A stretch of 64,000 nt of DNA, taken from Schistosoma haematobium. Taxonomy: Eukaryota > Platyhelminthes > Trematoda > Strigeidida > Schistosomatidae. How positions within the stretch are numbered: the stretch's first letter is position 1; every line of letters starts with the position of its first letter. This document shows, piece by piece, positions 1,441-45,399 of the stretch. Below the pieces are notes generated by a model. It had not been told where the DNA came from, ran no database searches, and saw nothing but the letters and a program-made list of their open reading frames with translations. The translations under genes were made by a program, and so were the position numbers. Where the stretch lies: assembly GCF_000699445.3 (NCBI RefSeq), contig NC_067198.1, forward strand, positions 23,943,536 to 24,007,535, in the 5' to 3' direction.

Positions 1441-1442
1441 AC

Positions 1443-1958
1443 TCAATATAAAATTCTGCGGTGATTTTGAGTAACATCTGGTACAATTTGGTTCATCGTG
1501 TTCCTCCAGTTATTTTCTGAATACGAGTCACCATAGCTTTCTCGATTAATAGCACGTGGACCACAATTTTGTTCGAGCTGACGTTTATTTTCGCAGCTAG
1601 ACAGTACCAGTAGTGTTTCATTTGATTCTGGACTCTGGGCATCATCTACAGGATCTGGCTCCTGATCATCTGGTATTGTCACAACTTCATGTGCATTTAG
1701 CACAATATTTTCTTGCTCTGAGCTGGACACGTTACCAATATTACGTTTTCCTTCTGGTATAGAGGGATTTGAATCCTGCACAGGATATGCTTCTGAAATG
1801 TCCATTACTGCACCATTATCTGCATGATACATAGATTTCTTATTTTCTGCTTGAATGCAAAGTCTGCCCAAAACTGTTACAAATAGCTGTTGTTGCAAGG
1901 CAAACATCTTCTGCTGGTGCTGTAATATTAACCGCAACTGTTCGAAAGAAATCGACAT
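1443..1958 (-). pseudogene. Truncated gag-like ORF, array copy 1 (left edge)
   Basis: This copy starts at the same ATG as the others (A9 run before it) but stops after 171 codons, because the array is cut at about 1441 and a 5-bp deletion (tcttc) near 1459 shifts the frame, so the C-terminus becomes RRILY. It carries two substitutions absent from the copies to its right: a Ser to Asn change in the PRAIS region and a Ser to Arg change in NNWSN. Edge copies of arrays often escape homogenisation, which fits. It joins the CR1-like fragment directly; no LTR or target-site duplication is seen at this edge. Confidence 0.85.
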
Positions 1959-2061
1959 TTTTTTTTGCCAATAATATTAGCTCCAAAAATCACCGGCAAT
2001 TATACAGCTAATTTATTTCCAAAATCTGAGTCACCACTTGTATTATTATTATTTCTTTGTT

Positions 2062-2152
2062 GCCAAAATCCCCGTCGCCAATTGTTATGACCTTGCGTCT
2101 CCCAATTATTTTGTTTTTGCCAAAATCCCCGTCGCCAATTGTTATGACCTTG
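2062..2152. repeat. 34-bp direct repeat across the LTR/PBS junction, in every unit
   Basis: Positions 2062-2095 and 2119-2152 are identical for 34 bp with a 57-bp offset. Each copy contains the LTR terminal TGTTATGACC and a whole primer-binding site, so every unit has two LTR-end/PBS modules in tandem. The pattern recurs in all 27 units, so it predates the amplification. Confidence 0.9.
2068..2080 (-). other. Primer-binding site (outer copy)
   Basis: The minus strand reads TGGCGACGGGGAT starting 2 nt after the LTR end, the normal place for the tRNA primer-binding site. It is close to TGGCGACGAGGA, the complement of a serine tRNA (GCU) 3' end that many invertebrate Ty3/gypsy elements use; the tRNA identity is from general knowledge and differs here by one base. 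The same 13 bases occur again at 2125-2137. Confidence 0.65.
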
Positions 2153-2649
2153 GATGTCTGACTTTTCGATCACACGACTTATCTACCAATCCGAATACGA
2201 CTTATACGAATCTTCGCACTAGGCCAACCAATGACGTTCAACCGGTGTGGGCAGTTTAGTGTCCTTATTGGTCCTATGTCCTACGAGCCCTTCCACTTGA
2301 GTCCAGAACAAGATACCAGCTTCCGAATCAGAGCAGATCGTTTATTTCAAGCATACTTAGTTTATATATCAATCACACAGACCGCAACGTACCATAAAAT
2401 AGGAAATAATATTTGTACACAAATAAGCCCAAAAAGTGGCTGTGAATGTGGGAGGCAGTAGTTAATAAACTGAACATAACTTAAGAACCGTAAATCGTAC
2501 AATAATAAATTATAGGCCAAAATAAAGCTTGTCATAAGAGGGATATAAATATACATAGTGTAATTGTTGAGTAGTTATACAATAAGAATATTAGTCCATG
2601 AATAGTCCTCGGAAGTTACCTGTAACTTAATCTCCACTCGGATATAACA
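2083..2649 (-). repeat. LTR, leftmost copy (described in full)
   Basis: On the minus strand the LTR begins TGTTATATCC and ends GGTCATAACA, so its ends form the short inverted repeat TGTTAT/ATAACA with TG...CA termini. It is preceded by a polypurine tract and followed, after 2 nt, by a primer-binding site, which fixes its identity and its orientation. A second match to the LTR end (TGTTATGACC on the plus strand) starts at 2140, so the true LTR could be 510 bp (2140-2649) instead of 567. The ambiguity arises from a 34-bp direct repeat at 2062-2095 and 2119-2152. Ty3/gypsy-type elements have this architecture; without pol the superfamily remains an inference. Confidence 0.9.
2341..2368 (-). promoter_or_regulatory. 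LTR TATA box and polyadenylation signal
   Basis: On the minus strand TATATAAA lies at 2368-2361 and AATAAA at 2346-2341, inside the LTR. This close pairing of a TATA box and a poly(A) signal is typical of compact retrotransposon LTRs. The same pair recurs in every LTR of the array, for example at 45118-45111 and 45096-45091 in the rightmost copy. Transcription would run leftwards through the gag-like ORF. Function is inferred from the motifs only. Confidence 0.6.
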
Positions 2650-2665
2650 CCCCCTTTTTTTTTTT
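2650..2665 (-). other. Polypurine tract
   Basis: On the minus strand a run of A11 followed by G5 lies immediately before the LTR start TGTTATATCC, the expected place for the plus-strand primer of an LTR element. In other units the tract varies from A8 to A11 and G4 to G5. A second purine-rich stretch, GAGGAGGAGGAGAATG, overlaps the end of the gag-like ORF about 80 bp upstream. Confidence 0.75.
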
Positions 2666-2725
2666 GAAAATTCCAACTTTAGATTCTTATTAAAAAAAAA
2701 AGAATTATATGTGACTTTAAATTCC

Positions 2726-3604
2726 TCAACATTCTCCTCCTCCTCGAAATAATGTTGGGTCCTTATGGCTCCAAATTACAACTAGTAGGACTTTATTTAA
2801 ACCATGTTTCTTGTATTGACTGGAGAATCCACTAAAAATGACTAGATGATGATGAACGACCTTTGATCTGAGTTCATTATTTTCAAATTCATTATGAATC
2901 TCGTTAGCAGATAACGAGTCATTAAGAAAGTCAACGTCTAACAGAATTAAATTAGATTTTTGGCCATCATTCGACTCAGCTGACATATTTCCCTCATTGT
3001 TATAAGAAGTTTCATCAAAATCATATGCATTATTCTGAGAATCAATATCTGGCACACTGTCATTAGAAATGGGATAAGTTGACTCAATATAAAATTCTGT
3101 CTTCCGGTGATTTTGAGTAACATCTGGTACAATTTGGTTCATCGTGTTGCTCCAGTTATTTTCTGAATACGAGTCACCATAGCTTTCTCGACTAATAGCA
3201 CGTGGACCACAATTTTGTTCGAGCTGACGTTTATTTTCGCAGCTAGACAGTACCAGTAGTGTTTCATTTGATTCTGGACTCTGGGCATCATCTACAGGAT
3301 CTGGCTCCTGATCATCTGGTATTGTCACAACTTCATGTGCATTTAGCACAATATTTTCTTGCTCTGAGCTGGACACGTTACCAATATTACGTTTTCCTTC
3401 TGGTATAGAGGGATTTGAATCCTGCACAGGATATGCTTCTGAAATGTCCATTACTGCACCATTATCTGCATGATACATAGATTTCTTATTTTCTGCTTGA
3501 ATGCAAAGTCTGCCCAAAACTGTTACAAATAGCTGTTGTTGCAAGGCAAACATCTTCTGCTGGTGCTGTAATATTAACCGCAACTGTTCGAAAGAAATCG
3601 ACAT
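2726..3604 (-). CDS. Gag-like protein of non-autonomous LTR element, copy 2 (reference description)
   Basis: A 292-residue ORF, the only coding region of each unit. Residues 1-33 form a glutamine-rich, helix-prone segment (FEQLRLILQHQQKMF, ALQQQLFVTVL) like the N-termini of Gag proteins from flatworm Ty3/gypsy elements. Residues from about 40 to 240 are acidic, rich in Asn and Ser, and of low complexity. The C-terminus is more basic and hydrophobic and ends RGGGEC. No CCHC knuckle, protease (D-S/T-G), RT, RNase H or integrase motif is present. A plausible origin is an internal deletion joining the start of gag to the end of pol, but this is inference. The ATG is the first in frame; apparent upstream extensions in some copies begin at TTG. 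An A9 run abuts the ATG. Whether the protein is made is unknown. Confidence 0.75.
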   Translation of the reverse strand: MSISFEQLRLILQHQQKMFALQQQLFVTVLGRLCIQAENKKSMYHADNGAVMDISEAYPVQDSNPSIPEGKRNIGNVSSSEQENIVLNAHEVVTIPDDQEPDPVDDAQSPESNETLLVLSSCENKRQLEQNCGPRAISRESYGDSYSENNWSNTMNQIVPDVTQNHRKTEFYIESTYPISNDSVPDIDSQNNAYDFDETSYNNEGNMSAESNDGQKSNLILLDVDFLNDSLSANEIHNEFENNELRSKVVHHHLVIFSGFSSQYKKHGLNKVLLVVIWSHKDPTLFRGGGEC

Positions 3605-4368
3605 TTTTTTTTGCCAATAATATTAGCTCCAAAAATCACCGGCAATTATACAGCTAATTTATTTCCAAAATCTGAGTCACCACTTGTATTATTATTATTT
3701 CTTTGTTGCCAAAATCCCCGTCGCCAATTGTTATGACCTTGCGTCTCCCAATTATTTTGTTTTTGCCAAAATCCCCGTCGCCAATTGTTATGACCTTGGA
3801 TGTCTGACTTTTCGATCACACGACTTATCTACCAATCCGAATACGACTTATACGAATCTTCGCACTAGGCCAACCAATGACGTTCAACCGGTGTGGGCAG
3901 TTTAGTGTCCTTATTGGTCCTATGTCCTACGAGCCCTTCCACTTGAGTCCAGAACAAGATACCAGCTTCCGAATCAGAGCAGATCGTTTATTTCAAGCAT
4001 ACTTAGTTTATATATCAATCACACAGACCGCAACGTACCATAAAATAGGAAATAATATTTGTACACAAATAAGCCCAAAAAGTGGCTGTGAATGTGGGAG
4101 GCAGTAGTTAATAAACTGAACATAACTTAAGAACCGTAAATCGTACAATAATAAATTATAGGCCAAAATAAAGCTTGTCATAAGAGGGATATAAATATAC
4201 ATAGTGTAATTGTTGAGTAGTTATACAATAAGAATATTAGTCCATGAATAGTCCTCGGAAGTTACCTGTAACTTAATCTCCACTCGGATATAACACCCCC
4301 TTTTTTTTTGAAAATTCCAACTTTAGATTCTTATTAAAAAAAAAGAATTATATGTGACTTTAAATTCC

Positions 4369-5247
4369 TCAACATTCTCCTCCTCCTCGAAATAATGTTG
4401 GGTCCTTATGGCTCCAAATTACAACTAGTAGGACTTTATTTAAACCATGTTTCTTGTATTGACTGGAGAATCCACTAAAAATGACTAGATGATGATGAAC
4501 GACCTTTGATCTGAGTTCATTATTTTCAAATTCATTATGAATCTCGTTAGCAGATAACGAGTCATTAAGAAAGTCAACGTCTAACAGAATTAAATTAGAT
4601 TTTTGGCCATCATTCGACTCAGCTGACATATTTCCCTCATTGTTATAAGAAGTTTCATCAAAATCATATGCATTATTCTGAGAATCAATATCTGGCACAC
4701 TGTCATTAGAAATGGGATAAGTTGACTCAATATAAAATTCTGTCTTCCGGTGATTTTGAGTAACATCTGGTACAATTTGGTTCATCGTGTTGCTCCAGTT
4801 ATTTTCTGAATACGAGTCACCATAGCTTTCTCGACTAATAGCACGTGGACCACAATTTTGTTCGAGCTGACGTTTATTTTCGCAGCTAGACAGTACCAGT
4901 AGTGTTTCATTTGATTCTGGACTCTGGGCATCATCTACAGGATCTGGCTCCTGATCATCTGGTATTGTCACAACTTCATGTGCATTTAGCACAATATTTT
5001 CTTGCTCTGAGCTGGACACGTTACCAATATTACGTTTTCCTTCTGGTATAGAGGGATTTGAATCCTGCACAGGATATGCTTCTGAAATGTCCATTACTGC
5101 ACCATTATCTGCATGATACATAGATTTCTTATTTTCTGCTTGAATGCAAAGTCTGCCCAAAACTGTTACAAATAGCTGTTGTTGCAAGGCAAACATCTTC
5201 TGCTGGTGCTGTAATATTAACCGCAACTGTTCGAAAGAAATCGACAT
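4369..5247 (-). CDS. Gag-like ORF, array copy 3
   Basis: Predicted protein identical to copy 2. The A run before the ATG is 10. Confidence 0.75.
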   Translation of the reverse strand: MSISFEQLRLILQHQQKMFALQQQLFVTVLGRLCIQAENKKSMYHADNGAVMDISEAYPVQDSNPSIPEGKRNIGNVSSSEQENIVLNAHEVVTIPDDQEPDPVDDAQSPESNETLLVLSSCENKRQLEQNCGPRAISRESYGDSYSENNWSNTMNQIVPDVTQNHRKTEFYIESTYPISNDSVPDIDSQNNAYDFDETSYNNEGNMSAESNDGQKSNLILLDVDFLNDSLSANEIHNEFENNELRSKVVHHHLVIFSGFSSQYKKHGLNKVLLVVIWSHKDPTLFRGGGEC

Positions 5248-6014
5248 TTTTTTTTTGCCAATAATATTAGCTCCAAAAATCACCGGCAATTATACAGCTA
5301 ATTTATTTCCAAAATCTGAGTCACCACTTGTATTATTATTATTTCTTTGTTGCCAAAATCCCCGTCGCCAATTGTTATGACCTTGCGTCTCCCAATTATT
5401 TTGTTTTTGCCAAAATCCCCGTCGCCAATTGTTATGACCTTGGATGTCTGACTTTTCGATCACACGACTTATCTACCAATCCGAATACGACTTATACGAA
5501 TCTTCGCACTAGGCCAACCAATGACGTTCAACCGGTGTGGGCAGTTTAGTGTCCTTATTGGTCCTATGTCCTACGAGCCCTTCCACTTGAGTCCAGAACA
5601 AGATACCAGCTTCCGAATCAGAGCAGATCGTTTATTTCAAGCATACTTAGTTTATATATCAATCACACAGACCGCAACGTACCATAAAATAGGAAATAAT
5701 ATTTGTACACAAATAAGCCCAAAAAGTGGCTGTGAATGTGGGAGGCAGTAGTTAATAAACTGAACATAACTTAAGAACCGTAAATCGTACAATAATAAAT
5801 TATAGGCCAAAATAAAGCTTGTCATAAGAGGGATATAAATATACATAGTGTAATTGTTGAGTAGTTATACAATAAGAATATTAGTCCATGAATAGTCCTC
5901 GGAAGTTACCTGTAACTTAATCTCCACTCGGATATAACACCCCCTTTTTTTTTGAAAATTCCAACTTTAGATTCTTATTAAAAAAAAAAAGAATTATATG
6001 TGACTTTAAATTCC

Positions 6015-6893
6015 TCAACATTCTCCTCCTCCTCGAAATAATGTTGGGTCCTTATGGCTCCAAATTACAACTAGTAGGACTTTATTTAAACCATGTTTCT
6101 TGTATTGACTGGAGAATCCACTAAAAATGACTAGATGATGATGAACGACCTTTGATCTGAGTTCATTATTTTCAAATTCATTATGAATCTCGTTAGCAGA
6201 TAACGAGTCATTAAGAAAGTCAACGTCTAACAGAATTAAATTAGATTTTTGGCCATCATTCGACTCAGCTGACATATTTCCCTCATTGTTATAAGAAGTT
6301 TCATCAAAATCATATGCATTATTCTGAGAATCAATATCTGGCACACTGTCATTAGAAATGGGATAAGTTGACTCAATATAAAATTCTGTCTTCCGGTGAT
6401 TTTGAGTAACATCTGGTACAATTTGGTTCATCGTGTTGCTCCAGTTATTTTCTGAATACGAGTCACCATAGCTTTCTCGACTAATAGCACGTGGACCACA
6501 ATTTTGTTCGAGCTGACGTTTATTTTCGCAGCTAGACAGTACCAGTAGTGTTTCATTTGATTCTGGACTCTGGGCATCATCTACAGGATCTGGCTCCTGA
6601 TCATCTGGTATTGTCACAACTTCATGTGCATTTAGCACAATATTTTCTTGCTCTGAGCTGGACACGTTACCAATATTACGTTTTCCTTCTGGTATAGAGG
6701 GATTTGAATCCTGCACAGGATATGCTTCTGAAATGTCCATTACTGCACCATTATCTGCATGATACATAGATTTCTTATTTTCTGCTTGAATGCAAAGTCT
6801 GCCCAAAACTGTTACAAATAGCTGTTGTTGCAAGGCAAACATCTTCTGCTGGTGCTGTAATATTAACCGCAACTGTTCGAAAGAAATCGACAT
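6015..6893 (-). CDS. Gag-like ORF, array copy 4
   Basis: Predicted protein identical to copy 2. The A run before the ATG is 7. Confidence 0.75.
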   Translation of the reverse strand: MSISFEQLRLILQHQQKMFALQQQLFVTVLGRLCIQAENKKSMYHADNGAVMDISEAYPVQDSNPSIPEGKRNIGNVSSSEQENIVLNAHEVVTIPDDQEPDPVDDAQSPESNETLLVLSSCENKRQLEQNCGPRAISRESYGDSYSENNWSNTMNQIVPDVTQNHRKTEFYIESTYPISNDSVPDIDSQNNAYDFDETSYNNEGNMSAESNDGQKSNLILLDVDFLNDSLSANEIHNEFENNELRSKVVHHHLVIFSGFSSQYKKHGLNKVLLVVIWSHKDPTLFRGGGEC

Positions 6894-7656
6894 TTTTTTG
6901 CCAATAATATTAGCTCCAAAAATCACCGGCAATTATACAGCTAATTTATTTCCAAAATCTGAGTCACCACTTGTATTATTATTATTTCTTTGTTGCCAAA
7001 ATCCCCGTCGCCAATTGTTATGACCTTGCGTCTCCCAATTATTTTGTTTTTGCCAAAATCCCCGTCGCCAATTGTTATGACCTTGGATGTCTGACTTTTC
7101 GATCACACGACTTATCTACCAATCCGAATACGACTTATACGAATCTTCGCACTAGGCCAACCAATGACGTTCAACCGGTGTGGGCAGTTTAGTGTCCTTA
7201 TTGGTCCTATGTCCTACGAGCCCTTCCACTTGAGTCCAGAACAAGATACCAGCTTCCGAATCAGAGCAGATCGTTTATTTCAAGCATACTTAGTTTATAT
7301 ATCAATCACACAGACCGCAACGTACCATAAAATAGGAAATAATATTTGTACACAAATAAGCCCAAAAAGTGGCTGTGAATGTGGGAGGCAGTAGTTAATA
7401 AACTGAACATAACTTAAGAACCGTAAATCGTACAATAATAAATTATAGGCCAAAATAAAGCTTGTCATAAGAGGGATATAAATATACATAGTGTAATTGT
7501 TGAGTAGTTATACAATAAGAATATTAGTCCATGAATAGTCCTCGGAAGTTACCTGTAACTTAATCTCCACTCGGATATAACACCCCCTTTTTTTTTTGAA
7601 AATTCCAACTTTAGATTCTTATTAAAAAAAAAGAATTATATGTGACTTTAAATTCC

Positions 7657-8535
7657 TCAACATTCTCCTCCTCCTCGAAATAATGTTGGGTCCTTATGGC
7701 TCCAAATTACAACTAGTAGGACTTTATTTAAACCATGTTTCTTGTATTGACTGGAGAATCCACTAAAAATGACTAGATGATGATGAACGACCTTTGATCT
7801 GAGTTCATTATTTTCAAATTCATTATGAATCTCGTTAGCAGATAACGAGTCATTAAGAAAGTCAACGTCTAACAGAATTAAATTAGATTTTTGGCCATCA
7901 TTCGACTCAGCTGACATATTTCCCTCATTGTTATAAGAAGTTTCATCAAAATCATATGCATTATTCTGAGAATCAATATCTGGCACACTGTCATTAGAAA
8001 TGGGATAAGTTGACTCAATATAAAATTCTGTCTTCCGGTGATTTTGAGTAACATCTGGTACAATTTGGTTCATCGTGTTGCTCCAGTTATTTTCTGAATA
8101 CGAGTCACCATAGCTTTCTCGACTAATAGCACGTGGACCACAATTTTGTTCGAGCTGACGTTTATTTTCGCAGCTAGACAGTACCAGTAGTGTTTCATTT
8201 GATTCTGGACTCTGGGCATCATCTACAGGATCTGGCTCCTGATCATCTGGTATTGTCACAACTTCATGTGCATTTAGCACAATATTTTCTTGCTCTGAGC
8301 TGGACACGTTACCAATATTACGTTTTCCTTCTGGTATAGAGGGATTTGAATCCTGCACAGGATATGCTTCTGAAATGTCCATTACTGCACCATTATCTGC
8401 ATGATACATAGATTTCTTATTTTCTGCTTGAATGCAAAGTCTGCCCAAAACTGTTACAAATAGCTGTTGTTGCAAGGCAAACATCTTCTGCTGGTGCTGT
8501 AATATTAACCGCAACTGTTCGAAAGAAATCGACAT
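7657..8535 (-). CDS. Gag-like ORF, array copy 5
   Basis: Predicted protein identical to copy 2. The A run before the ATG is 9. Confidence 0.75.
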   Translation of the reverse strand: MSISFEQLRLILQHQQKMFALQQQLFVTVLGRLCIQAENKKSMYHADNGAVMDISEAYPVQDSNPSIPEGKRNIGNVSSSEQENIVLNAHEVVTIPDDQEPDPVDDAQSPESNETLLVLSSCENKRQLEQNCGPRAISRESYGDSYSENNWSNTMNQIVPDVTQNHRKTEFYIESTYPISNDSVPDIDSQNNAYDFDETSYNNEGNMSAESNDGQKSNLILLDVDFLNDSLSANEIHNEFENNELRSKVVHHHLVIFSGFSSQYKKHGLNKVLLVVIWSHKDPTLFRGGGEC

Positions 8536-9302
8536 TTTTTTTTGCCAATAATATTAGCTCCAAAAATCACCGGCAATTATACAGCTAATTTATTTCCAAA
8601 ATCTGAGTCACCACTTGTATTATTATTATTTCTTTGTTGCCAAAATCCCCGTCGCCAATTGTTATGACCTTGCGTCTCCCAATTATTTTGTTTTTGCCAA
8701 AATCCCCGTCGCCAATTGTTATGACCTTGGATGTCTGACTTTTCGATCACACGACTTATCTACCAATCCGAATACGACTTATACGAATCTTCGCACTAGG
8801 CCAACCAATGACGTTCAACCGGTGTGGGCAGTTTAGTGTCCTTATTGGTCCTATGTCCTACGAGCCCTTCCACTTGAGTCCAGAACAAGATACCAGCTTC
8901 CGAATCAGAGCAGATCGTTTATTTCAAGCATACTTAGTTTATATATCAATCACACAGACCGCAACGTACCATAAAATAGGAAATAATATTTGTACACAAA
9001 TAAGCCCAAAAAGTGGCTGTGAATGTGGGAGGCAGTAGTTAATAAACTGAACATAACTTAAGAACCGTAAATCGTACAATAATAAATTATAGGCCAAAAT
9101 AAAGCTTGTCATAAGAGGGATATAAATATACATAGTGTAATTGTTGAGTAGTTATACAATAAGAATATTAGTCCATGAATAGTCCTCGGAAGTTACCTGT
9201 AACTTAATCTCCACTCGGATATAACACCCCCTTTTTTTTTTGAAAATTCCAACTTTAGATTCTTATTAAAAAAAAAAAGAATTATATGTGACTTTAAATT
9301 CC

Positions 9303-10181
9303 TCAACATTCTCCTCCTCCTCGAAATAATGTTGGGTCCTTATGGCTCCAAATTACAACTAGTAGGACTTTATTTAAACCATGTTTCTTGTATTGACTGG
9401 AGAATCCACTAAAAATGACTAGATGATGATGAACGACCTTTGATCTGAGTTCATTATTTTCAAATTCATTATGAATCTCGTTAGCAGATAACGAGTCATT
9501 AAGAAAGTCAACGTCTAACAGAATTAAATTAGATTTTTGGCCATCATTCGACTCAGCTGACATATTTCCCTCATTGTTATAAGAAGTTTCATCAAAATCA
9601 TATGCATTATTCTGAGAATCAATATCTGGCACACTGTCATTAGAAATGGGATAAGTTGACTCAATATAAAATTCTGTCTTCCGGTGATTTTGAGTAACAT
9701 CTGGTACAATTTGGTTCATCGTGTTGCTCCAGTTATTTTCTGAATACGAGTCACCATAGCTTTCTCGACTAATAGCACGTGGACCACAATTTTGTTCGAG
9801 CTGACGTTTATTTTCGCAGCTAGACAGTACCAGTAGTGTTTCATTTGATTCTGGACTCTGGGCATCATCTACAGGATCTGGCTCCTGATCATCTGGTATT
9901 GTCACAACTTCATGTGCATTTAGCACAATATTTTCTTGCTCTGAGCTGGACACGTTACCAATATTACGTTTTCCTTCTGGTATAGAGGGATTTGAATCCT
10001 GCACAGGATATGCTTCTGAAATGTCCATTACTGCACCATTATCTGCATGATACATAGATTTCTTATTTTCTGCTTGAATGCAAAGTCTGCCCAAAACTGT
10101 TACAAATAGCTGTTGTTGCAAGGCAAACATCTTCTGCTGGTGCTGTAATATTAACCGCAACTGTTCGAAAGAAATCGACAT
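9303..10181 (-). CDS. Gag-like ORF, array copy 6
   Basis: Predicted protein identical to copy 2. The A run before the ATG is 10. Confidence 0.75.
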   Translation of the reverse strand: MSISFEQLRLILQHQQKMFALQQQLFVTVLGRLCIQAENKKSMYHADNGAVMDISEAYPVQDSNPSIPEGKRNIGNVSSSEQENIVLNAHEVVTIPDDQEPDPVDDAQSPESNETLLVLSSCENKRQLEQNCGPRAISRESYGDSYSENNWSNTMNQIVPDVTQNHRKTEFYIESTYPISNDSVPDIDSQNNAYDFDETSYNNEGNMSAESNDGQKSNLILLDVDFLNDSLSANEIHNEFENNELRSKVVHHHLVIFSGFSSQYKKHGLNKVLLVVIWSHKDPTLFRGGGEC

Positions 10182-10947
10182 TTTTTTTTTGCCAATAATA
10201 TTAGCTCCAAAAATCACCGGCAATTATACAGCTAATTTATTTCCAAAATCTGAGTCACCACTTGTATTATTATTATTTCTTTGTTGCCAAAATCCCCGTC
10301 GCCAATTGTTATGACCTTGCGTCTCCCAATTATTTTGTTTTTGCCAAAATCCCCGTCGCCAATTGTTATGACCTTGGATGTCTGACTTTTCGATCACACG
10401 ACTTATCTACCAATCCGAATACGACTTATACGAATCTTCGCACTAGGCCAACCAATGACGTTCAACCGGTGTGGGCAGTTTAGTGTCCTTATTGGTCCTA
10501 TGTCCTACGAGCCCTTCCACTTGAGTCCAGAACAAGATACCAGCTTCCGAATCAGAGCAGATCGTTTATTTCAAGCATACTTAGTTTATATATCAATCAC
10601 ACAGACCGCAACGTACCATAAAATAGGAAATAATATTTGTACACAAATAAGCCCAAAAAGTGGCTGTGAATGTGGGAGGCAGTAGTTAATAAACTGAACA
10701 TAACTTAAGAACCGTAAATCGTACAATAATAAATTATAGGCCAAAATAAAGCTTGTCATAAGAGGGATATAAATATACATAGTGTAATTGTTGAGTAGTT
10801 ATACAATAAGAATATTAGTCCATGAATAGTCCTCGGAAGTTACCTGTAACTTAATCTCCACTCGGATATAACACCCCCTTTTTTTTTGAAAATTCCAACT
10901 TTAGATTCTTATTAAAAAAAAAAGAATTATATGTGACTTTAAATTCC

Positions 10948-35618: not shown

Positions 35619-36497
35619 TCAACATTCTCCTCCTCCTCGAAATAATGTTGGGTCCTTATGGCTCCAAATTACAACTAGTAGGACTTTATTTAAACCATGT
35701 TTCTTGTATTGACTGGAGAATCCACTAAAAATGACTAGATGATGATGAACGACCTTTGATCTGAGTTCATTATTTTCAAATTCATTATGAATCTCGTTAG
35801 CAGATAACGAGTCATTAAGAAAGTCAACGTCTAACAGAATTAAATTAGATTTTTGGCCATCATTCGACTCAGCTGACATATTTCCCTCATTGTTATAAGA
35901 AGTTTCATCAAAATCATATGCATTATTCTGAGAATCAATATCTGGCACACTGTCATTAGAAATGGGATAAGTTGACTCAATATAAAATTCTGTCTTCCGG
36001 TGATTTTGAGTAACATCTGGTACAATTTGGTTCATCGTGTTGCTCCAGTTATTTTCTGAATACGAGTCACCATAGCTTTCTCGACTAATAGCACGTGGAC
36101 CACAATTTTGTTCGAGCTGACGTTTATTTTCGCAGCTAGACAGTACCAGTAGTGTTTCATTTGATTCTGGACTCTGGGCATCATCTACAGGATCTGGCTC
36201 CTGATCATCTGGTATTGTCACAACTTCATGTGCATTTAGCACAATATTTTCTTGCTCTGAGCTGGACACGTTACCAATATTACGTTTTCCTTCTGGTATA
36301 GAGGGATTTGAATCCTGCACAGGATATGCTTCTGAAATGTCCATTACTGCACCATTATCTGCATGATACATAGATTTCTTATTTTCTGCTTGAATGCAAA
36401 GTCTGCCCAAAACTGTTACAAATAGCTGTTGTTGCAAGGCAAACATCTTCTGCTGGTGCTGTAATATTAACCGCAACTGTTCGAAAGAAATCGACAT
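35619..36497 (-). CDS. Gag-like ORF, array copy 22
   Basis: Predicted protein identical to copy 2. The A run before the ATG is 7. The polypurine tract on its left has G4. Confidence 0.75.
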   Translation of the reverse strand: MSISFEQLRLILQHQQKMFALQQQLFVTVLGRLCIQAENKKSMYHADNGAVMDISEAYPVQDSNPSIPEGKRNIGNVSSSEQENIVLNAHEVVTIPDDQEPDPVDDAQSPESNETLLVLSSCENKRQLEQNCGPRAISRESYGDSYSENNWSNTMNQIVPDVTQNHRKTEFYIESTYPISNDSVPDIDSQNNAYDFDETSYNNEGNMSAESNDGQKSNLILLDVDFLNDSLSANEIHNEFENNELRSKVVHHHLVIFSGFSSQYKKHGLNKVLLVVIWSHKDPTLFRGGGEC

Positions 36498-37260
36498 TTT
36501 TTTGCCAATAATATTAGCTCCAAAAATCACCGGCAATTATACAGCTAATTTATTTCCAAAATCTGAGTCACCACTTGTATTATTATTATTTCTTTGTTGC
36601 CAAAATCCCCGTCGCCAATTGTTATGACCTTGCGTCTCCCAATTATTTTGTTTTTGCCAAAATCCCCGTCGCCAATTGTTATGACCTTGGATGTCTGACT
36701 TTTCGATCACACGACTTATCTACCAATCCGAATACGACTTATACGAATCTTCGCACTAGGCCAACCAATGACGTTCAACCGGTGTGGGCAGTTTAGTGTC
36801 CTTATTGGTCCTATGTCCTACGAGCCCTTCCACTTGAGTCCAGAACAAGATACCAGCTTCCGAATCAGAGCAGATCGTTTATTTCAAGCATACTTAGTTT
36901 ATATATCAATCACACAGACCGCAACGTACCATAAAATAGGAAATAATATTTGTACACAAATAAGCCCAAAAAGTGGCTGTGAATGTGGGAGGCAGTAGTT
37001 AATAAACTGAACATAACTTAAGAACCGTAAATCGTACAATAATAAATTATAGGCCAAAATAAAGCTTGTCATAAGAGGGATATAAATATACATAGTGTAA
37101 TTGTTGAGTAGTTATACAATAAGAATATTAGTCCATGAATAGTCCTCGGAAGTTACCTGTAACTTAATCTCCACTCGGATATAACACCCCCTTTTTTTTG
37201 AAAATTCCAACTTTAGATTCTTATTAAAAAAAAAAAGAATTATATGTGACTTTAAATTCC

Positions 37261-38139
37261 TCAACATTCTCCTCCTCCTCGAAATAATGTTGGGTCCTTA
37301 TGGCTCCAAATTACAACTAGTAGGACTTTATTTAAACCATGTTTCTTGTATTGACTGGAGAATCCACTAAAAATGACTAGATGATGATGAACGACCTTTG
37401 ATCTGAGTTCATTATTTTCAAATTCATTATGAATCTCGTTAGCAGATAACGAGTCATTAAGAAAGTCAACGTCTAACAGAATTAAATTAGATTTTTGGCC
37501 ATCATTCGACTCAGCTGACATATTTCCCTCATTGTTATAAGAAGTTTCATCAAAATCATATGCATTATTCTGAGAATCAATATCTGGCACACTGTCATTA
37601 GAAATGGGATAAGTTGACTCAATATAAAATTCTGTCTTCCGGTGATTTTGAGTAACATCTGGTACAATTTGGTTCATCGTGTTGCTCCAGTTATTTTCTG
37701 AATACGAGTCACCATAGCTTTCTCGACTAATAGCACGTGGACCACAATTTTGTTCGAGCTGACGTTTATTTTCGCAGCTAGACAGTACCAGTAGTGTTTC
37801 ATTTGATTCTGGACTCTGGGCATCATCTACAGGATCTGGCTCCTGATCATCTGGTATTGTCACAACTTCATGTGCATTTAGCACAATATTTTCTTGCTCT
37901 GAGCTGGACACGTTACCAATATTACGTTTTCCTTCTGGTATAGAGGGATTTGAATCCTGCACAGGATATGCTTCTGAAATGTCCATTACTGCACCATTAT
38001 CTGCATGATACATAGATTTCTTATTTTCTGCTTGAATGCAAAGTCTGCCCAAAACTGTTACAAATAGCTGTTGTTGCAAGGCAAACATCTTCTGCTGGTG
38101 CTGTAATATTAACCGCAACTGTTCGAAAGAAATCGACAT
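37261..38139 (-). CDS. Gag-like ORF, array copy 23
   Basis: Predicted protein identical to copy 2. The A run before the ATG is 7. Confidence 0.75.
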   Translation of the reverse strand: MSISFEQLRLILQHQQKMFALQQQLFVTVLGRLCIQAENKKSMYHADNGAVMDISEAYPVQDSNPSIPEGKRNIGNVSSSEQENIVLNAHEVVTIPDDQEPDPVDDAQSPESNETLLVLSSCENKRQLEQNCGPRAISRESYGDSYSENNWSNTMNQIVPDVTQNHRKTEFYIESTYPISNDSVPDIDSQNNAYDFDETSYNNEGNMSAESNDGQKSNLILLDVDFLNDSLSANEIHNEFENNELRSKVVHHHLVIFSGFSSQYKKHGLNKVLLVVIWSHKDPTLFRGGGEC

Positions 38140-38901
38140 TTTTTTGCCAATAATATTAGCTCCAAAAATCACCGGCAATTATACAGCTAATTTATTTCCA
38201 AAATCTGAGTCACCACTTGTATTATTATTATTTCTTTGTTGCCAAAATCCCCGTCGCCAATTGTTATGACCTTGCGTCTCCCAATTATTTTGTTTTTGCC
38301 AAAATCCCCGTCGCCAATTGTTATGACCTTGGATGTCTGACTTTTCGATCACACGACTTATCTACCAATCCGAATACGACTTATACGAATCTTCGCACTA
38401 GGCCAACCAATGACGTTCAACCGGTGTGGGCAGTTTAGTGTCCTTATTGGTCCTATGTCCTACGAGCCCTTCCACTTGAGTCCAGAACAAGATACCAGCT
38501 TCCGAATCAGAGCAGATCGTTTATTTCAAGCATACTTAGTTTATATATCAATCACACAGACCGCAACGTACCATAAAATAGGAAATAATATTTGTACACA
38601 AATAAGCCCAAAAAGTGGCTGTGAATGTGGGAGGCAGTAGTTAATAAACTGAACATAACTTAAGAACCGTAAATCGTACAATAATAAATTATAGGCCAAA
38701 ATAAAGCTTGTCATAAGAGGGATATAAATATACATAGTGTAATTGTTGAGTAGTTATACAATAAGAATATTAGTCCATGAATAGTCCTCGGAAGTTACCT
38801 GTAACTTAATCTCCACTCGGATATAACACCCCTTTTTTTTTGAAAATTCCAACTTTAGATTCTTATTAAAAAAAAAAGAATTATATGTGACTTTAAATTC
38901 C

Positions 38902-39780
38902 TCAACATTCTCCTCCTCCTCGAAATAATGTTGGGTCCTTATGGCTCCAAATTACAACTAGTAGGACTTTATTTAAACCATGTTTCTTGTATTGACTGGA
39001 GAATCCACTAAAAATGACTAGATGATGATGAACGACCTTTGATCTGAGTTCATTATTTTCAAATTCATTATGAATCTCGTTAGCAGATAACGAGTCATTA
39101 AGAAAGTCAACGTCTAACAGAATTAAATTAGATTTTTGGCCATCATTCGACTCAGCTGACATATTTCCCTCATTGTTATAAGAAGTTTCATCAAAATCAT
39201 ATGCATTATTCTGAGAATCAATATCTGGCACACTGTCATTAGAAATGGGATAAGTTGACTCAATATAAAATTCTGTCTTCCGGTGATTTTGAGTAACATC
39301 TGGTACAATTTGGTTCATCGTGTTGCTCCAGTTATTTTCTGAATACGAGTCACCATAGCTTTCTCGACTAATAGCACGTGGACCACAATTTTGTTCGAGC
39401 TGACGTTTATTTTCGCAGCTAGACAGTACCAGTAGTGTTTCATTTGATTCTGGACTCTGGGCATCATCTACAGGATCTGGCTCCTGATCATCTGGTATTG
39501 TCACAACTTCATGTGCATTTAGCACAATATTTTCTTGCTCTGAGCTGGACACGTTACCAATATTACGTTTTCCTTCTGGTATAGAGGGATTTGAATCCTG
39601 CACAGGATATGCTTCTGAAATGTCCATTACTGCACCATTATCTGCATGATACATAGATTTCTTATTTTCTGCTTGAATGCAAAGTCTGCCCAAAACTGTT
39701 ACAAATAGCTGTTGTTGCAAGGCAAACATCTTCTGCTGGTGCTGTAATATTAACCGCAACTGTTCGAAAGAAATCGACAT
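38902..39780 (-). CDS. Gag-like ORF, array copy 24
   Basis: Predicted protein identical to copy 2. The A run before the ATG is 9. The polypurine tract on its left has G4. Confidence 0.75.
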   Translation of the reverse strand: MSISFEQLRLILQHQQKMFALQQQLFVTVLGRLCIQAENKKSMYHADNGAVMDISEAYPVQDSNPSIPEGKRNIGNVSSSEQENIVLNAHEVVTIPDDQEPDPVDDAQSPESNETLLVLSSCENKRQLEQNCGPRAISRESYGDSYSENNWSNTMNQIVPDVTQNHRKTEFYIESTYPISNDSVPDIDSQNNAYDFDETSYNNEGNMSAESNDGQKSNLILLDVDFLNDSLSANEIHNEFENNELRSKVVHHHLVIFSGFSSQYKKHGLNKVLLVVIWSHKDPTLFRGGGEC

Positions 39781-40546
39781 TTTTTTTTGCCAATAATATT
39801 AGCTCCAAAAATCACCGGCAATTATACAGCTAATTTATTTCCAAAATCTGAGTCACCACTTGTATTATTATTATTTCTTTGTTGCCAAAATCCCCGTCGC
39901 CAATTGTTATGACCTTGCGTCTCCCAATTATTTTGTTTTTGCCAAAATCCCCGTCGCCAATTGTTATGACCTTGGATGTCTGACTTTTCGATCACACGAC
40001 TTATCTACCAATCCGAATACGACTTATACGAATCTTCGCACTAGGCCAACCAATGACGTTCAACCGGTGTGGGCAGTTTAGTGTCCTTATTGGTCCTATG
40101 TCCTACGAGCCCTTCCACTTGAGTCCAGAACAAGATACCAGCTTCCGAATCAGAGCAGATCGTTTATTTCAAGCATACTTAGTTTATATATCAATCACAC
40201 AGACCGCAACGTACCATAAAATAGGAAATAATATTTGTACACAAATAAGCCCAAAAAGTGGCTGTGAATGTGGGAGGCAGTAGTTAATAAACTGAACATA
40301 ACTTAAGAACCGTAAATCGTACAATAATAAATTATAGGCCAAAATAAAGCTTGTCATAAGAGGGATATAAATATACATAGTGTAATTGTTGAGTAGTTAT
40401 ACAATAAGAATATTAGTCCATGAATAGTCCTCGGAAGTTACCTGTAACTTAATCTCCACTCGGATATAACACCCCCTTTTTTTTGAAAATTCCAACTTTA
40501 GATTCTTATTAAAAAAAAAAAAGAATTATATGTGACTTTAAATTCC

Positions 40547-41425
40547 TCAACATTCTCCTCCTCCTCGAAATAATGTTGGGTCCTTATGGCTCCAAATTAC
40601 AACTAGTAGGACTTTATTTAAACCATGTTTCTTGTATTGACTGGAGAATCCACTAAAAATGACTAGATGATGATGAACGACCTTTGATCTGAGTTCATTA
40701 TTTTCAAATTCATTATGAATCTCGTTAGCAGATAACGAGTCATTAAGAAAGTCAACGTCTAACAGAATTAAATTAGATTTTTGGCCATCATTCGACTCAG
40801 CTGACATATTTCCCTCATTGTTATAAGAAGTTTCATCAAAATCATATGCATTATTCTGAGAATCAATATCTGGCACACTGTCATTAGAAATGGGATAAGT
40901 TGACTCAATATAAAATTCTGTCTTCCGGTGATTTTGAGTAACATCTGGTACAATTTGGTTCATCGTGTTGCTCCAGTTATTTTCTGAATACGAGTCACCA
41001 TAGCTTTCTCGACTAATAGCACGTGGACCACAATTTTGTTCGAGCTGACGTTTATTTTCGCAGCTAGACAGTACCAGTAGTGTTTCATTTGATTCTGGAC
41101 TCTGGGCATCATCTACAGGATCTGGCTCCTGATCATCTGGTATTGTCACAACTTCATGTGCATTTAGCACAATATTTTCTTGCTCTGAGCTGGACACGTT
41201 ACCAATATTACGTTTTCCTTCTGGTATAGAGGGATTTGAATCCTGCACAGGATATGCTTCTGAAATGTCCATTACTGCACCATTATCTGCATGATACATA
41301 GATTTCTTATTTTCTGCTTGAATGCAAAGTCTGCCCAAAACTGTTACAAATAGCTGTTGTTGCAAGGCAAACATCTTCTGCTGGTGCTGTAATATTAACC
41401 GCAACTGTTCGAAAGAAATCGACAT
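40547..41425 (-). CDS. Gag-like ORF, array copy 25
   Basis: Predicted protein identical to copy 2. The A run before the ATG is 7. Confidence 0.75.
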   Translation of the reverse strand: MSISFEQLRLILQHQQKMFALQQQLFVTVLGRLCIQAENKKSMYHADNGAVMDISEAYPVQDSNPSIPEGKRNIGNVSSSEQENIVLNAHEVVTIPDDQEPDPVDDAQSPESNETLLVLSSCENKRQLEQNCGPRAISRESYGDSYSENNWSNTMNQIVPDVTQNHRKTEFYIESTYPISNDSVPDIDSQNNAYDFDETSYNNEGNMSAESNDGQKSNLILLDVDFLNDSLSANEIHNEFENNELRSKVVHHHLVIFSGFSSQYKKHGLNKVLLVVIWSHKDPTLFRGGGEC

Positions 41426-42189
41426 TTTTTTGCCAATAATATTAGCTCCAAAAATCACCGGCAATTATACAGCTAATTTATTTCCAAAATCTGAGTCACC
41501 ACTTGTATTATTATTATTTCTTTGTTGCCAAAATCCCCGTCGCCAATTGTTATGACCTTGCGTCTCCCAATTATTTTGTTTTTGCCAAAATCCCCGTCGC
41601 CAATTGTTATGACCTTGGATGTCTGACTTTTCGATCACACGACTTATCTACCAATCCGAATACGACTTATACGAATCTTCGCACTAGGCCAACCAATGAC
41701 GTTCAACCGGTGTGGGCAGTTTAGTGTCCTTATTGGTCCTATGTCCTACGAGCCCTTCCACTTGAGTCCAGAACAAGATACCAGCTTCCGAATCAGAGCA
41801 GATCGTTTATTTCAAGCATACTTAGTTTATATATCAATCACACAGACCGCAACGTACCATAAAATAGGAAATAATATTTGTACACAAATAAGCCCAAAAA
41901 GTGGCTGTGAATGTGGGAGGCAGTAGTTAATAAACTGAACATAACTTAAGAACCGTAAATCGTACAATAATAAATTATAGGCCAAAATAAAGCTTGTCAT
42001 AAGAGGGATATAAATATACATAGTGTAATTGTTGAGTAGTTATACAATAAGAATATTAGTCCATGAATAGTCCTCGGAAGTTACCTGTAACTTAATCTCC
42101 ACTCGGATATAACACCCCCTTTTTTTTGAAAATTCCAACTTTAGATTCTTATTAAAAAAAAAAAAGAATTATATGTGACTTTAAATTCC

Positions 42190-43068
42190 TCAACATTCTC
42201 CTCCTCCTCGAAATAATGTTGGGTCCTTATGGCTCCAAATTACAACTAGTAGGACTTTATTTAAACCATGTTTCTTGTATTGACTGGAGAATCCACTAAA
42301 AATGACTAGATGATGATGAACGACCTTTGATCTGAGTTCATTATTTTCAAATTCATTATGAATCTCGTTAGCAGATAACGAGTCATTAAGAAAGTCAACG
42401 TCTAACAGAATTAAATTAGATTTTTGGCCATCATTCGACTCAGCTGACATATTTCCCTCATTGTTATAAGAAGTTTCATCAAAATCATATGCATTATTCT
42501 GAGAATCAATATCTGGCACACTGTCATTAGAAATGGGATAAGTTGACTCAATATAAAATTCTGTCTTCCGGTGATTTTGAGTAACATCTGGTACAATTTG
42601 GTTCATCGTGTTGCTCCAGTTATTTTCTGAATACGAGTCACCATAGCTTTCTCGACTAATAGCACGTGGACCACAATTTTGTTCGAGCTGACGTTTATTT
42701 TCGCAGCTAGACAGTACCAGTAGTGTTTCATTTGATTCTGGACTCTGGGCATCATCTACAGGATCTGGCTCCTGATCATCTGGTATTGTCACAACTTCAT
42801 GTGCATTTAGCACAATATTTTCTTGCTCTGAGCTGGACACGTTACCAATATTACGTTTTCCTTCTGGTATAGAGGGATTTGAATCCTGCACAGGATATGC
42901 TTCTGAAATGTCCATTACTGCACCATTATCTGCATGATACATAGATTTCTTATTTTCTGCTTGAATGCAAAGTCTGCCCAAAACTGTTACAAATAGCTGT
43001 TGTTGCAAGGCAAACATCTTCTGCTGGTGCTGTAATATTAACCGCAACTGTTCGAAAGAAATCGACAT
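42190..43068 (-). CDS. Gag-like ORF, array copy 26
   Basis: Predicted protein identical to copy 2. The A run before the ATG is 9. Confidence 0.75.
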   Translation of the reverse strand: MSISFEQLRLILQHQQKMFALQQQLFVTVLGRLCIQAENKKSMYHADNGAVMDISEAYPVQDSNPSIPEGKRNIGNVSSSEQENIVLNAHEVVTIPDDQEPDPVDDAQSPESNETLLVLSSCENKRQLEQNCGPRAISRESYGDSYSENNWSNTMNQIVPDVTQNHRKTEFYIESTYPISNDSVPDIDSQNNAYDFDETSYNNEGNMSAESNDGQKSNLILLDVDFLNDSLSANEIHNEFENNELRSKVVHHHLVIFSGFSSQYKKHGLNKVLLVVIWSHKDPTLFRGGGEC

Positions 43069-43832
43069 TTTTTTTTGCCAATAATATTAGCTCCAAAAAT
43101 CACCGGCAATTATACAGCTAATTTATTTCCAAAATCTGAGTCACCACTTGTATTATTATTATTTCTTTGTTGCCAAAATCCCCGTCGCCAATTGTTATGA
43201 CCTTGCGTCTCCCAATTATTTTGTTTTTGCCAAAATCCCCGTCGCCAATTGTTATGACCTTGGATGTCTGACTTTTCGATCACACGACTTATCTACCAAT
43301 CCGAATACGACTTATACGAATCTTCGCACTAGGCCAACCAATGACGTTCAACCGGTGTGGGCAGTTTAGTGTCCTTATTGGTCCTATGTCCTACGAGCCC
43401 TTCCACTTGAGTCCAGAACAAGATACCAGCTTCCGAATCAGAGCAGATCGTTTATTTCAAGCATACTTAGTTTATATATCAATCACACAGACCGCAACGT
43501 ACCATAAAATAGGAAATAATATTTGTACACAAATAAGCCCAAAAAGTGGCTGTGAATGTGGGAGGCAGTAGTTAATAAACTGAACATAACTTAAGAACCG
43601 TAAATCGTACAATAATAAATTATAGGCCAAAATAAAGCTTGTCATAAGAGGGATATAAATATACATAGTGTAATTGTTGAGTAGTTATACAATAAGAATA
43701 TTAGTCCATGAATAGTCCTCGGAAGTTACCTGTAACTTAATCTCCACTCGGATATAACACCCCCTTTTTTTTGAAAATTCCAACTTTAGATTCTTATTAA
43801 AAAAAAAAGAATTATATGTGACTTTAAATTCC

Positions 43833-44711
43833 TCAACATTCTCCTCCTCCTCGAAATAATGTTGGGTCCTTATGGCTCCAAATTACAACTAGTAGGACTT
43901 TATTTAAACCATGTTTCTTGTATTGACTGGAGAATCCACTAAAAATGACTAGATGATGATGAACGACCTTTGATCTGAGTTCATTATTTTCAAATTCATT
44001 ATGAATCTCGTTAGCAGATAACGAGTCATTAAGAAAGTCAACGTCTAACAGAATTAAATTAGATTTTTGGCCATCATTCGACTCAGCTGACATATTTCCC
44101 TCATTGTTATAAGAAGTTTCATCAAAATCATATGCATTATTCTGAGAATCAATATCTGGCACACTGTCATTAGAAATGGGATAAGTTGACTCAATATAAA
44201 ATTCTGTCTTCCGGTGATTTTGAGTAACATCTGGTACAATTTGGTTCATCGTGTTGCTCCAGTTATTTTCTGAATACGAGTCACCATAGCTTTCTCGACT
44301 AATAGCACGTGGACCACAATTTTGTTCGAGCTGACGTTTATTTTCGCAGCTAGACAGTACCAGTAGTGTTTCATTTGATTCTGGACTCTGGGCATCATCT
44401 ACAGGATCTGGCTCCTGATCATCTGGTATTGTCACAACTTCATGTGCATTTAGCACAATATTTTCTTGCTCTGAGCTGGACACGTTACCAATATTACGTT
44501 TTCCTTCTGGTATAGAGGGATTTGAATCCTGCACAGGATATGCTTCTGAAATGTCCATTACTGCACCATTATCTGCATGATACATAGATTTCTTATTTTC
44601 TGCTTGAATGCAAAGTCTGCCCAAAACTGTTACAAATAGCTGTTGTTGCAAGGCAAACATCTTCTGCTGGTGCTGTAATATTAACCGCAACTGTTCGAAA
44701 GAAATCGACAT
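43833..44711 (-). CDS. Gag-like ORF, array copy 27 (right edge, first in transcription order)
   Basis: Predicted protein identical to copy 2; the A run before the ATG is 7. About 30 bp upstream of the ATG, near 44736, this copy lacks one A of an A5 run found in the other units (ccaaaatcacc instead of ccaaaaatcacc). It is the copy next to the intact 5' LTR. Confidence 0.75.
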   Translation of the reverse strand: MSISFEQLRLILQHQQKMFALQQQLFVTVLGRLCIQAENKKSMYHADNGAVMDISEAYPVQDSNPSIPEGKRNIGNVSSSEQENIVLNAHEVVTIPDDQEPDPVDDAQSPESNETLLVLSSCENKRQLEQNCGPRAISRESYGDSYSENNWSNTMNQIVPDVTQNHRKTEFYIESTYPISNDSVPDIDSQNNAYDFDETSYNNEGNMSAESNDGQKSNLILLDVDFLNDSLSANEIHNEFENNELRSKVVHHHLVIFSGFSSQYKKHGLNKVLLVVIWSHKDPTLFRGGGEC

Positions 44712-44832
44712 TTTTTTGCCAATAATATTAGCTCCAAAATCACCGGCAATTATACAGCTAATTTATTTCCAAAATCTGAGTCACCACTTGTATTATTATT
44801 ATTTCTTTGTTGCCAAAATCCCCGTCGCCAAT

Positions 44833-45399
44833 TGTTATGACCTTGCGTCTCCCAATTATTTTGTTTTTGCCAAAATCCCCGTCGCCAATTGTTATGACCT
44901 TGGATGTCTGACTTTTCGATCACACGACTTATCTACCAATCCGAATACGACTTATACGAATCTTCGCACTAGGCCAACCAATGACGTTCAACCGGTGTGG
45001 GCAGTTTAGTGTCCTTATTGGTCCTATGTCCTACGAGCCCTTCCACTTGAGTCCAGAACAAGATACCAGCTTCCGAATCAGAGCAGATCGTTTATTTCAA
45101 GCATACTTAGTTTATATATCAATCACACAGACCGCAACGTACCATAAAATAGGAAATAATATTTGTACACAAATAAGCCCAAAAAGTGGCTGTGAATGTG
45201 GGAGGCAGTAGTTAATAAACTGAACATAACTTAAGAACCGTAAATCGTACAATAATAAATTATAGGCCAAAATAAAGCTTGTCATAAGAGGGATATAAAT
45301 ATACATAGTGTAATTGTTGAGTAGTTATACAATAAGAATATTAGTCCATGAATAGTCCTCGGAAGTTACCTGTAACTTAATCTCCACTCGGATATAACA
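44833..45399 (-). repeat. LTR, rightmost copy (5' LTR of the array)
   Basis: In transcription order this is the first LTR. It starts precisely at 45399 with TGTTATATCC and abuts unrelated sequence (tgtttgcatg on the plus strand), so it preserves one genuine insertion boundary. TATATAAA is at 45118-45111 and AATAAA at 45096-45091. As in the other units an alternative inner LTR end lies at 44890. Confidence 0.9.

What the first reader, a model, noticed from the sequence alone, without database searches (positions are those of the whole stretch)
1441..45399. A 44-kb satellite-like array built from a gag-only LTR retrotransposon
Twenty-seven LTRs alternate with 26 complete and one truncated internal region in strict head-to-tail order, with a period near 1645 bp and one LTR shared between neighbours. 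Transposition by itself makes isolated LTR-internal-LTR copies. Long multi-LTR arrays need unequal exchange between LTRs, or rolling-circle copying or integration of circular DNA. An array this long and this uniform suggests an LTR element that has become a satellite. I do not know of a described schistosome example with this unit.
Basis: partly seen in the sequence, partly recalled or inferred. Interest (0 to 1): 0.88.

Follow-up and report, generated by a model that had tools for sequence, protein, structure and literature searches.

The report
44-kb array of identical LTR units
A 44-kb stretch of what is likely a blood-fluke genome consists of 27 identical 510-bp repeats alternating with 26 almost identical copies of a 1.1-kb insert that looks like the inside of a small LTR retrotransposon, and it likely grew in place by unequal exchange between the repeats.

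Summary
Window 1440-45399 holds 27 LTR-like repeats (510 bp, 27 of 27 identical) and 26 full plus one truncated internal region, head to tail on the minus strand, period 1640-1648 bp. Of the 26 full units, 25 differ only in three long homopolymer tracts; the outermost (u26) also lacks one base of a 5-base run. The truncated edge unit has two substitutions and a 5-bp deletion, all in its outer 107 bp.

Both flanks match one LINE protein (P0038, Schistosoma intercalatum) in order, with about 237 codons missing at the truncated edge. The other edge is exactly an LTR terminus. This fits insertion into a LINE, growth by unequal exchange, and a deletion at one end (inferred).

"Gag-only" is not supported. 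The 292-aa ORF, the same in 26 of 26 units, has 36 relatives (34 named Schistosoma, 2 unnamed), no Gag domain and a very low-confidence model.

LTR-sharing arrays are known in plants, clams and tapeworms; I found none reported for schistosomes. New are the near-perfect uniformity and a genus-wide ORF in every unit. Copy number and abundance need reads; the genome search did not complete (8 tries).

The parts
1440..45399 (-). whole array: 27 LTRs, 26 full internals, one truncated internal; element sense is the minus strand
1440..2139 (-). truncated internal region (unit T); two substitutions (1503, 1546) and a 5-bp deletion (1458/1459) relative to the full units
2140..2649 (-). LTR 1 (of unit T)
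3786..4295 (-). LTR 2
5430..5939 (-). LTR 3
7073..7582 (-). LTR 4
8717..9226 (-). LTR 5
10364..10873 (-). LTR 6
12007..12516 (-). LTR 7
13652..14161 (-). LTR 8
15297..15806 (-). LTR 9
16941..17450 (-). LTR 10
18588..19097 (-). LTR 11
20232..20741 (-). LTR 12
21880..22389 (-). LTR 13
23528..24037 (-). LTR 14
25170..25679 (-). LTR 15
26814..27323 (-). LTR 16
28459..28968 (-). LTR 17
30103..30612 (-). LTR 18
31748..32257 (-). LTR 19
33391..33900 (-). LTR 20
35037..35546 (-). LTR 21
36677..37186 (-). LTR 22
38319..38828 (-). LTR 23
39962..40471 (-). LTR 24
41605..42114 (-). LTR 25
43250..43759 (-). LTR 26
44890..45399 (-). LTR 27; its outer TG end is the right edge of the array
2120..2137 (-). primer-binding-site-like sequence 2 bp from the LTR end (one of 27 such sites); tRNA match not tested
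   Evidence: 27 sites at offset 2
2063..2080 (-). second copy of the PBS-like sequence, with the last bases of the LTR, 57 bp further in (one of 27)
   Evidence: 27 sites at offset 59
2650..2665 (-). polypurine tract A11G5 directly before the LTR's TG end in unit u1 (A8-11, G4-5 over 26 units)
2726..3604 (-). 292-aa ORF of unit u1 (stop codon included); the same protein in 26 of 26 full units
1..1439 (-). left flank: endonuclease/RT part of a broken LINE, matching residues 496-845 of P0038 (at 1438-371)
45400..46167 (-). right flank: upstream part of the same LINE type, residues 1-258 of P0038 (with one frame change), ending at the LTR terminus

Best explanation
The 44-kb block is an array of 27 identical LTR-like repeats and 26 full internal regions inside what is likely one LINE copy, likely begun by an ordinary insertion of one non-autonomous LTR element and likely lengthened by unequal homologous exchange between its LTRs. 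Shown: the shared-LTR architecture, the near-absence of differences, the exact LTR terminus at the right edge, the truncated left edge, and LINE sequence on both sides in the order of one LINE protein with about 237 codons missing. Inferred: (1) an element inserted into the LINE; (2) its 5' LTR mispaired with the 3' LTR on a sister or homologous chromatid, giving LTR-int-LTR-int-LTR; (3) further exchanges in the 1.64-kb register lengthened and homogenised the array recently; (4) a deletion removed the last LTR, part of the last internal region and about 0.7 kb of the LINE. Mobilisation by another element's enzymes is inferred from the lack of any pol gene. The function of the 292-aa protein is unknown; it is not shown to be Gag.
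For: Shared LTRs and constant register: 27 LTRs, 26 periods of 1640-1648 bp. Identity: 27 of 27 LTRs identical; 25 of 26 full units differ only in three long homopolymers, and u26 in one more base. Edge effect: all four changes outside those tracts lie in the two outermost units; the three in T would fall there by chance with p about 2e-5 on uniform placement (post hoc). A toy simulation of unequal exchange (60 runs, arbitrary rates) put about 5.5 times as many private changes in terminal as in interior units. Precise right edge at the LTR's TG end, as integrase leaves and as random circle integration would not. The two flanks match one LINE protein in order: P0038 residues 1-258 at 46167-45404 (82-91% identity) and 496-845 at 1438-371 (90%). 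Some spatial order in the homopolymers: PPT A-run against position rho -0.61, p 0.001, and T-run lag-1 p 0.04, both uncorrected for eight tests. The authors of PMC4558846 explain tapeworm ta-TRIM tandems by unequal crossing over (passages).
Against: No target-site duplication can be seen because the 3' edge is lost. No single dispersed copy, empty allele, solo LTR or read was available. The spread of homopolymer lengths is 10,000-17,000 times what the absence of substitutions allows at equal rates, so either slippage is very fast or part of it is sequencing error. Most spatial tests were negative (lag-1: A-run p 0.73, PPT A-run p 0.32, G-run p 1.0; trends: A, T and G runs p 0.09, 0.26, 0.33). 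The data cannot separate sister-chromatid exchange from gene conversion or break-induced copying. The three changes next to the left edge could also come from error-prone repair at the deletion.
Confidence: 0.6

Rival explanations
1. A multi-LTR cDNA, made by reverse transcription of read-through transcripts or by template switching, was integrated as a concatemer in one step.
For: The right edge is an exact LTR end, as integrase would leave. Every unit has two PBS-like sites (54 in all), which might allow irregular priming. Kalendar et al. propose template switching and report Cassandra transcripts of two to five units. A single burst would explain the lack of substitutions.
Against: 26 units in 44 kb are far more than the two to five units per transcript reported there. 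Reverse transcription would be expected to leave some substitutions (general knowledge). The weak spatial order in the homopolymers and the changed edge unit are not predicted.
Confidence: 0.12
2. Rolling-circle copying of a one-LTR circle made the tandem, which then entered the LINE by end joining.
For: One-LTR circles would give exactly this unit; near-perfect identity; about 0.7 kb of LINE missing at the truncated end.
Against: A break at the exact LTR TG end by chance is about 1 in 1,645 (arithmetic on the period). The three changes at the left edge sit only in the outer 107 bp.
Confidence: 0.12
3. Assembly artefact: one or a few physical units were strung into 26, or amplified DNA was assembled.
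For: Units are identical outside homopolymers (bar one base), the class of site where long reads err most (error profile recalled). No reads or second assembly could be checked (genome search did not complete).
Against: The 26 units show 23 different tract-length combinations, though read errors could cause that; both flanks match one LINE protein in order; assemblers usually collapse such arrays (recalled; said of short-read assemblies in PMC7215508), so 26 could be too few.
Confidence: 0.12

Closest known systems
Cassandra TRIM tandem arrays in plants (Kalendar et al. 2020, PMC7215508; abstract, part 1 of 2 of Results, and Discussion read)
   Same: LTR-internal-LTR-internal arrays with shared LTRs; almost identical units; truncated end units occur; no pol gene
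   Different: Plant element of about half a kb per unit with 5S sequences in the LTR and no coding capacity; up to 12 units (13 LTRs, ~6 kb)
biv-TRIM arrays in bivalves (Sci Rep 2019, PMC6934838; passages read)
   Same: Animal, LTR-sharing arrays of pattern TDRx_I(x-1); longest locus TDR58_I57, more units than here
   Different: Much shorter units (longest locus 16.6 kb); described as a TRIM; the 93.9-96.5% similarities I saw are for variants within species, not for one array
ta-TRIM of taeniid tapeworms (Koziol et al. 2015, PMC4558846; passages read)
   Same: Flatworm, non-autonomous LTR element; a few tandems, ascribed by the authors to unequal crossing over
   Different: 198-bp LTRs, ~590 bp inside, no ORF over 120 codons; tRNA-Leu PBS; the authors found nothing similar in other flatworms, S. 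mansoni included
W-elements of Schistosoma mansoni (Stitz et al. 2021, PMC8490949; passages read)
   Same: Schistosome satellite-like tandem repeats, some with stretches similar to LTR elements Saci-1 or Boudicca
   Different: In the passages I saw, monomers are not LTR-internal units and no complete element with LTR, PBS and PPT is described
Nonaut elements of S. mansoni (named in review PMC8293314, passages read; the original 2005 paper is not held)
   Same: Listed among the LTR elements of S. mansoni and by name non-autonomous; a relative of this family could be among them
   Different: Sequences not seen here, so relation untested; the review's text does not contain the words tandem or satellite
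Satellites from LTR-retrotransposons in Lathyrus sativus (PMC7004042; passages read)
   Same: Retrotransposon-derived tandem repeats that expanded into longer arrays
   Different: There short tandem repeats inside Ogre elements expanded; here the unit is the whole LTR plus internal region

Membership tests
LTR retrotransposon | Repeats with TG...CA ends | tested here: met
   TGTTAT...ATAACA, 510 bp, 27 of 27
LTR retrotransposon | Polypurine tract directly before the 3' LTR | tested here: met
   A8-11 G4-5 before TG in 26 of 26 full units; the truncated unit lacks this part
LTR retrotransposon | Primer binding site complementary to a host tRNA | tested here: inconclusive
   TGG-starting site 2 bp after the LTR in 27 of 27; no schistosome tRNA set to compare
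LTR retrotransposon | Target-site duplication | tested here: inconclusive
   Right edge is an LTR end; left edge truncated with LINE sequence missing
LTR retrotransposon | Dispersed single copies in the genome | not testable with these tools
   The genome search unanswered 8 times; one unit has no match outside the array in the window; 36 ORF relatives of 38-100% identity suggest a dispersed family
Gag-only element (TR-GAG; definition recalled, papers seen only as a listing) | ORF with a Gag domain | tested here: not met
   No Gag family in 23 of 23 proteins scanned at E up to 1 (the window's and 22 of the 36 relatives); no Cys-His box in the sequence; pLDDT 30.6 with one helix
TRIM | Small element without coding capacity | tested here: not met
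   292-aa ORF in 26 of 26 full units; 0 of 3000 simulated sequences had one as long
LTR retrozyme | Hammerhead ribozyme in the LTR | tested here: not met
   No Rfam match at E up to 1 in window 1-6000, which holds three of the 27 identical LTRs
Satellite DNA | Long head-to-tail array | tested here: met
   26 full units, 43,960 bp
Satellite DNA | High abundance or several loci | not testable with these tools
   No whole genome reached

The most novel reading that the evidence does not exclude
A coding satellite caught being born: an LTR element turned into an rDNA-like cluster of 26 identical, LTR-driven copies of a Schistosoma-only protein gene, growing and shrinking between worms, with the array rather than transposition now spreading and homogenising the gene.
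Probability: 0.15. Interest if true: 0.75.

Novelty: new variant of a known kind. Interest (0 to 1): 0.52.

Why it matters
It is a fresh, nearly mutation-free case of a mobile element turning into a tandem repeat, with both ends readable against a known LINE. That makes the first steps of satellite birth testable (unequal exchange, concatemer integration or circles) in a parasite genus whose satellites and sex-chromosome repeats are of interest. It also draws attention to a protein family found so far only in Schistosoma, unnamed in the databases searched, that the unit carries.

Tried and rejected
Gag identity: Pfam on the ORF and on 23 family members gave no Gag family, only a LIM domain in one member (P0036, probably a chimeric gene model) and sub-threshold matches. 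A second protein search with 60 N-terminal residues returned only proteins already found, 17 of 17; it could see only proteins of about 164-521 aa, so a long Gag-Pol partner would be missed. AlphaFold2 gave pLDDT 30.6, pTM 0.18 and one helix at residues 11-44, so I ran no fold search. The alignment was shallow (23 sequences), so this is absence of support, not proof of disorder.

Retrozyme idea: no Rfam match. tRNA genes in the window: 0, by a tool set for bacterial code.

DNA relatives: none in phages, none in viral contigs; two bacterial loci from one 20-base pattern were taken as chance and not used. These collections are not of animal genomes, so the misses say little.

Dating from homopolymers was given up: their spread is out of proportion to the zero substitutions. 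The simulation used arbitrary rates and only shows the direction of the edge effect.

Papers: searches (open-access library only). Sections or passages were read of PMC7215508, PMC8490949, PMC4558846, PMC6934838, PMC8293314, PMC7004042 and PMC554778 (Sinbad; its passages hold no PBS or tRNA data to compare). Two papers were not held. No paper holds any of five gene names of relatives.
Full report
WHAT IS THERE. The window carries a tandem array from 1440 to 45399. Read on the minus strand it runs LTR-internal-LTR-internal and ends in a truncated internal region at the left. Exact matching finds 27 LTRs of 510 bp, all 27 identical in sequence, and 26 internal regions of 1130-1138 bp; the period is 1640-1648 bp with mean 1644.2 (a first fuzzy count gave 512 bp). 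The 25-mers of the array occur about 24-28 times (500-bp means) and those of bins wholly outside it 1.0-1.3 times.

WHY THE REPEATS ARE READ AS LTRs. In a pure tandem array repetition alone cannot show where an LTR begins. The evidence is positional. The 510-bp block has TGTTAT...ATAACA ends. It is preceded by a polypurine tract (A8-11 G4-5) in 26 of 26 full units and followed after two bases by a PBS-like site in 27 of 27. TATA-like and AATAAA motifs lie inside it (motifs only). The right edge of the whole array falls exactly on the TG end. The PBS-like site together with the last bases of the LTR is repeated 57 bp further in, so there are two such sites after every LTR (54 in all). No tRNA comparison was possible.

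UNIFORMITY. An alignment of all 27 units shows no substitution among the 26 full units once the polypurine tract is read as A- and G-run lengths. Differences are confined to three homopolymer tracts (A7-10 before the ATG, T9-13, and the polypurine tract) plus one missing base in a 5-base run of u26, the outermost full unit. The 26 units show 23 distinct tract-length combinations. The truncated unit T has two substitutions and a 5-bp deletion, all within its outer 107 bp; its LTR is identical to the others. All four changes outside the long tracts thus sit in the two terminal units. Under uniform placement the chance for the three in T is about 2e-5 (chosen after seeing the data). Zero substitutions over about 40,100 interior sites gives a 95% upper bound of 7.5e-5 per site since the units separated (star-like descent assumed), so the interior is young or recently homogenised. 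The tract-length variances (0.8-1.3) are then 10,000-17,000 times the substitution bound. I read this as fast slippage, sequencing error, or both, and do not date with it. One tract shows a trend along the array (PPT A-run, rho -0.61, p 0.001 uncorrected) and one a weak neighbour correlation (T-run, p 0.04 uncorrected); the other six tests were negative.

THE ORF IS NOT SHOWN TO BE GAG. Each full unit has the same 292-aa ORF (26 of 26); none of 3000 sequences simulated from the dinucleotides of one internal region had one that long (maximum 156 codons). 36 proteins matched: 34 named Schistosoma (S. haematobium up to 99%, S. bovis, S. curassoni, S. margrebowiei, S. intercalatum, S. guineensis, S. 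mattheei, and S. mansoni and S. rodhaini at 38-43%) and 2 unnamed ENA records, one of them 100% identical over its best local alignment. No Pfam Gag family matches any of the 23 proteins scanned, namely the window's own and 22 of the 36 relatives. The N-terminal part alone finds only the same family. The model is of very low confidence with one helix. The ORF's openness across species suggests that it is maintained, but no codon test was possible. The window is likely from the S. haematobium group (inferred from these identities and the LINE below).

THE INSERTION SITE. The sequences on both sides are minus-strand LINE. I joined translations of the two flanks for one search (2279 proteins with E up to 0.001, 120 listed). 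A protein of S. intercalatum (P0038, 845 aa) matches the right flank with residues 1-258 (46167-45404, two pieces of 91% and 82% identity) and the left flank with residues 496-845 (1438-371, 90%). So both flanks likely come from one LINE copy (less simply, two of the same family), and about 237 codons, roughly 0.7 kb, are missing between them. I place the missing stretch at the truncated left edge, because the right edge is an intact LTR end. A deletion that took the last part of the array and 0.7 kb of LINE explains this best (inferred). It also explains why no target-site duplication remains.

HOW IT LIKELY AROSE. One element inserted into the LINE; its two LTRs mispaired and gave a three-LTR form; repeated exchange in the 1.64-kb register lengthened and homogenised it; a deletion trimmed one end. 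Koziol et al. invoke unequal crossing over for tapeworm ta-TRIM tandems, and Kalendar et al. give LTR recombination beside template switching for Cassandra. Terminal units that escape homogenisation are expected under such exchange; a toy simulation agrees in direction. Concatemer integration, circles and assembly error remain open; I give each 0.12.

WHAT IS KNOWN. LTR-sharing arrays are not new: Cassandra with 13 LTRs and 12 internals in about 6 kb, clam biv-TRIM with 58 repeats in a locus of at most 16.6 kb, tapeworm ta-TRIM. Schistosome satellites with LTR-derived pieces are known as W-elements. I found no schistosome array of this sort in the held papers, and most subscription papers, among them the 2005 paper naming the Nonaut elements, could not be read. 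This array differs from those by its 44-kb length, the absence of substitutions among full units, and a long conserved ORF in each full unit. By definition it is neither a TRIM (it codes) nor a shown TR-GAG (no Gag domain).

LIMITS. No read, second assembly or whole genome could be consulted: the genome search failed eight times. Copy number, abundance, dispersal and expression are therefore untested.

Noticed in passing
window 47333-47533 and 52430-52630: A 201-bp direct repeat (99%) flanks a minus-strand LINE with two ORFs (47584-50439, 50358-51467): it looks like a nested LINE with an unusually long target-site duplication of about 200 bp, just upstream of the LINE sequence that borders the array.
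   Followed up: partly
window 51822-51888 and 52625-52691: A 67-bp direct repeat (98.5%) overlapping the end of that 201-bp repeat.
   Followed up: no
window 61604-61969 (+): An exon-like ORF with a Snf7 domain, by recall most like CHMP5, so the array lies about 16 kb from a likely host gene.
   Followed up: no
window 58454-60007 (-): A LINE RT fragment of the same broad family as the LINE that borders the array.
   Followed up: no
proteins P0049, P0050, P0052, P0061, P0074, P0098: Records labelled Streptococcus dysgalactiae or Lactococcus garvieae hold proteins 37-40% identical to this fluke LINE, possibly animal DNA in bacterial assemblies.
   Followed up: no
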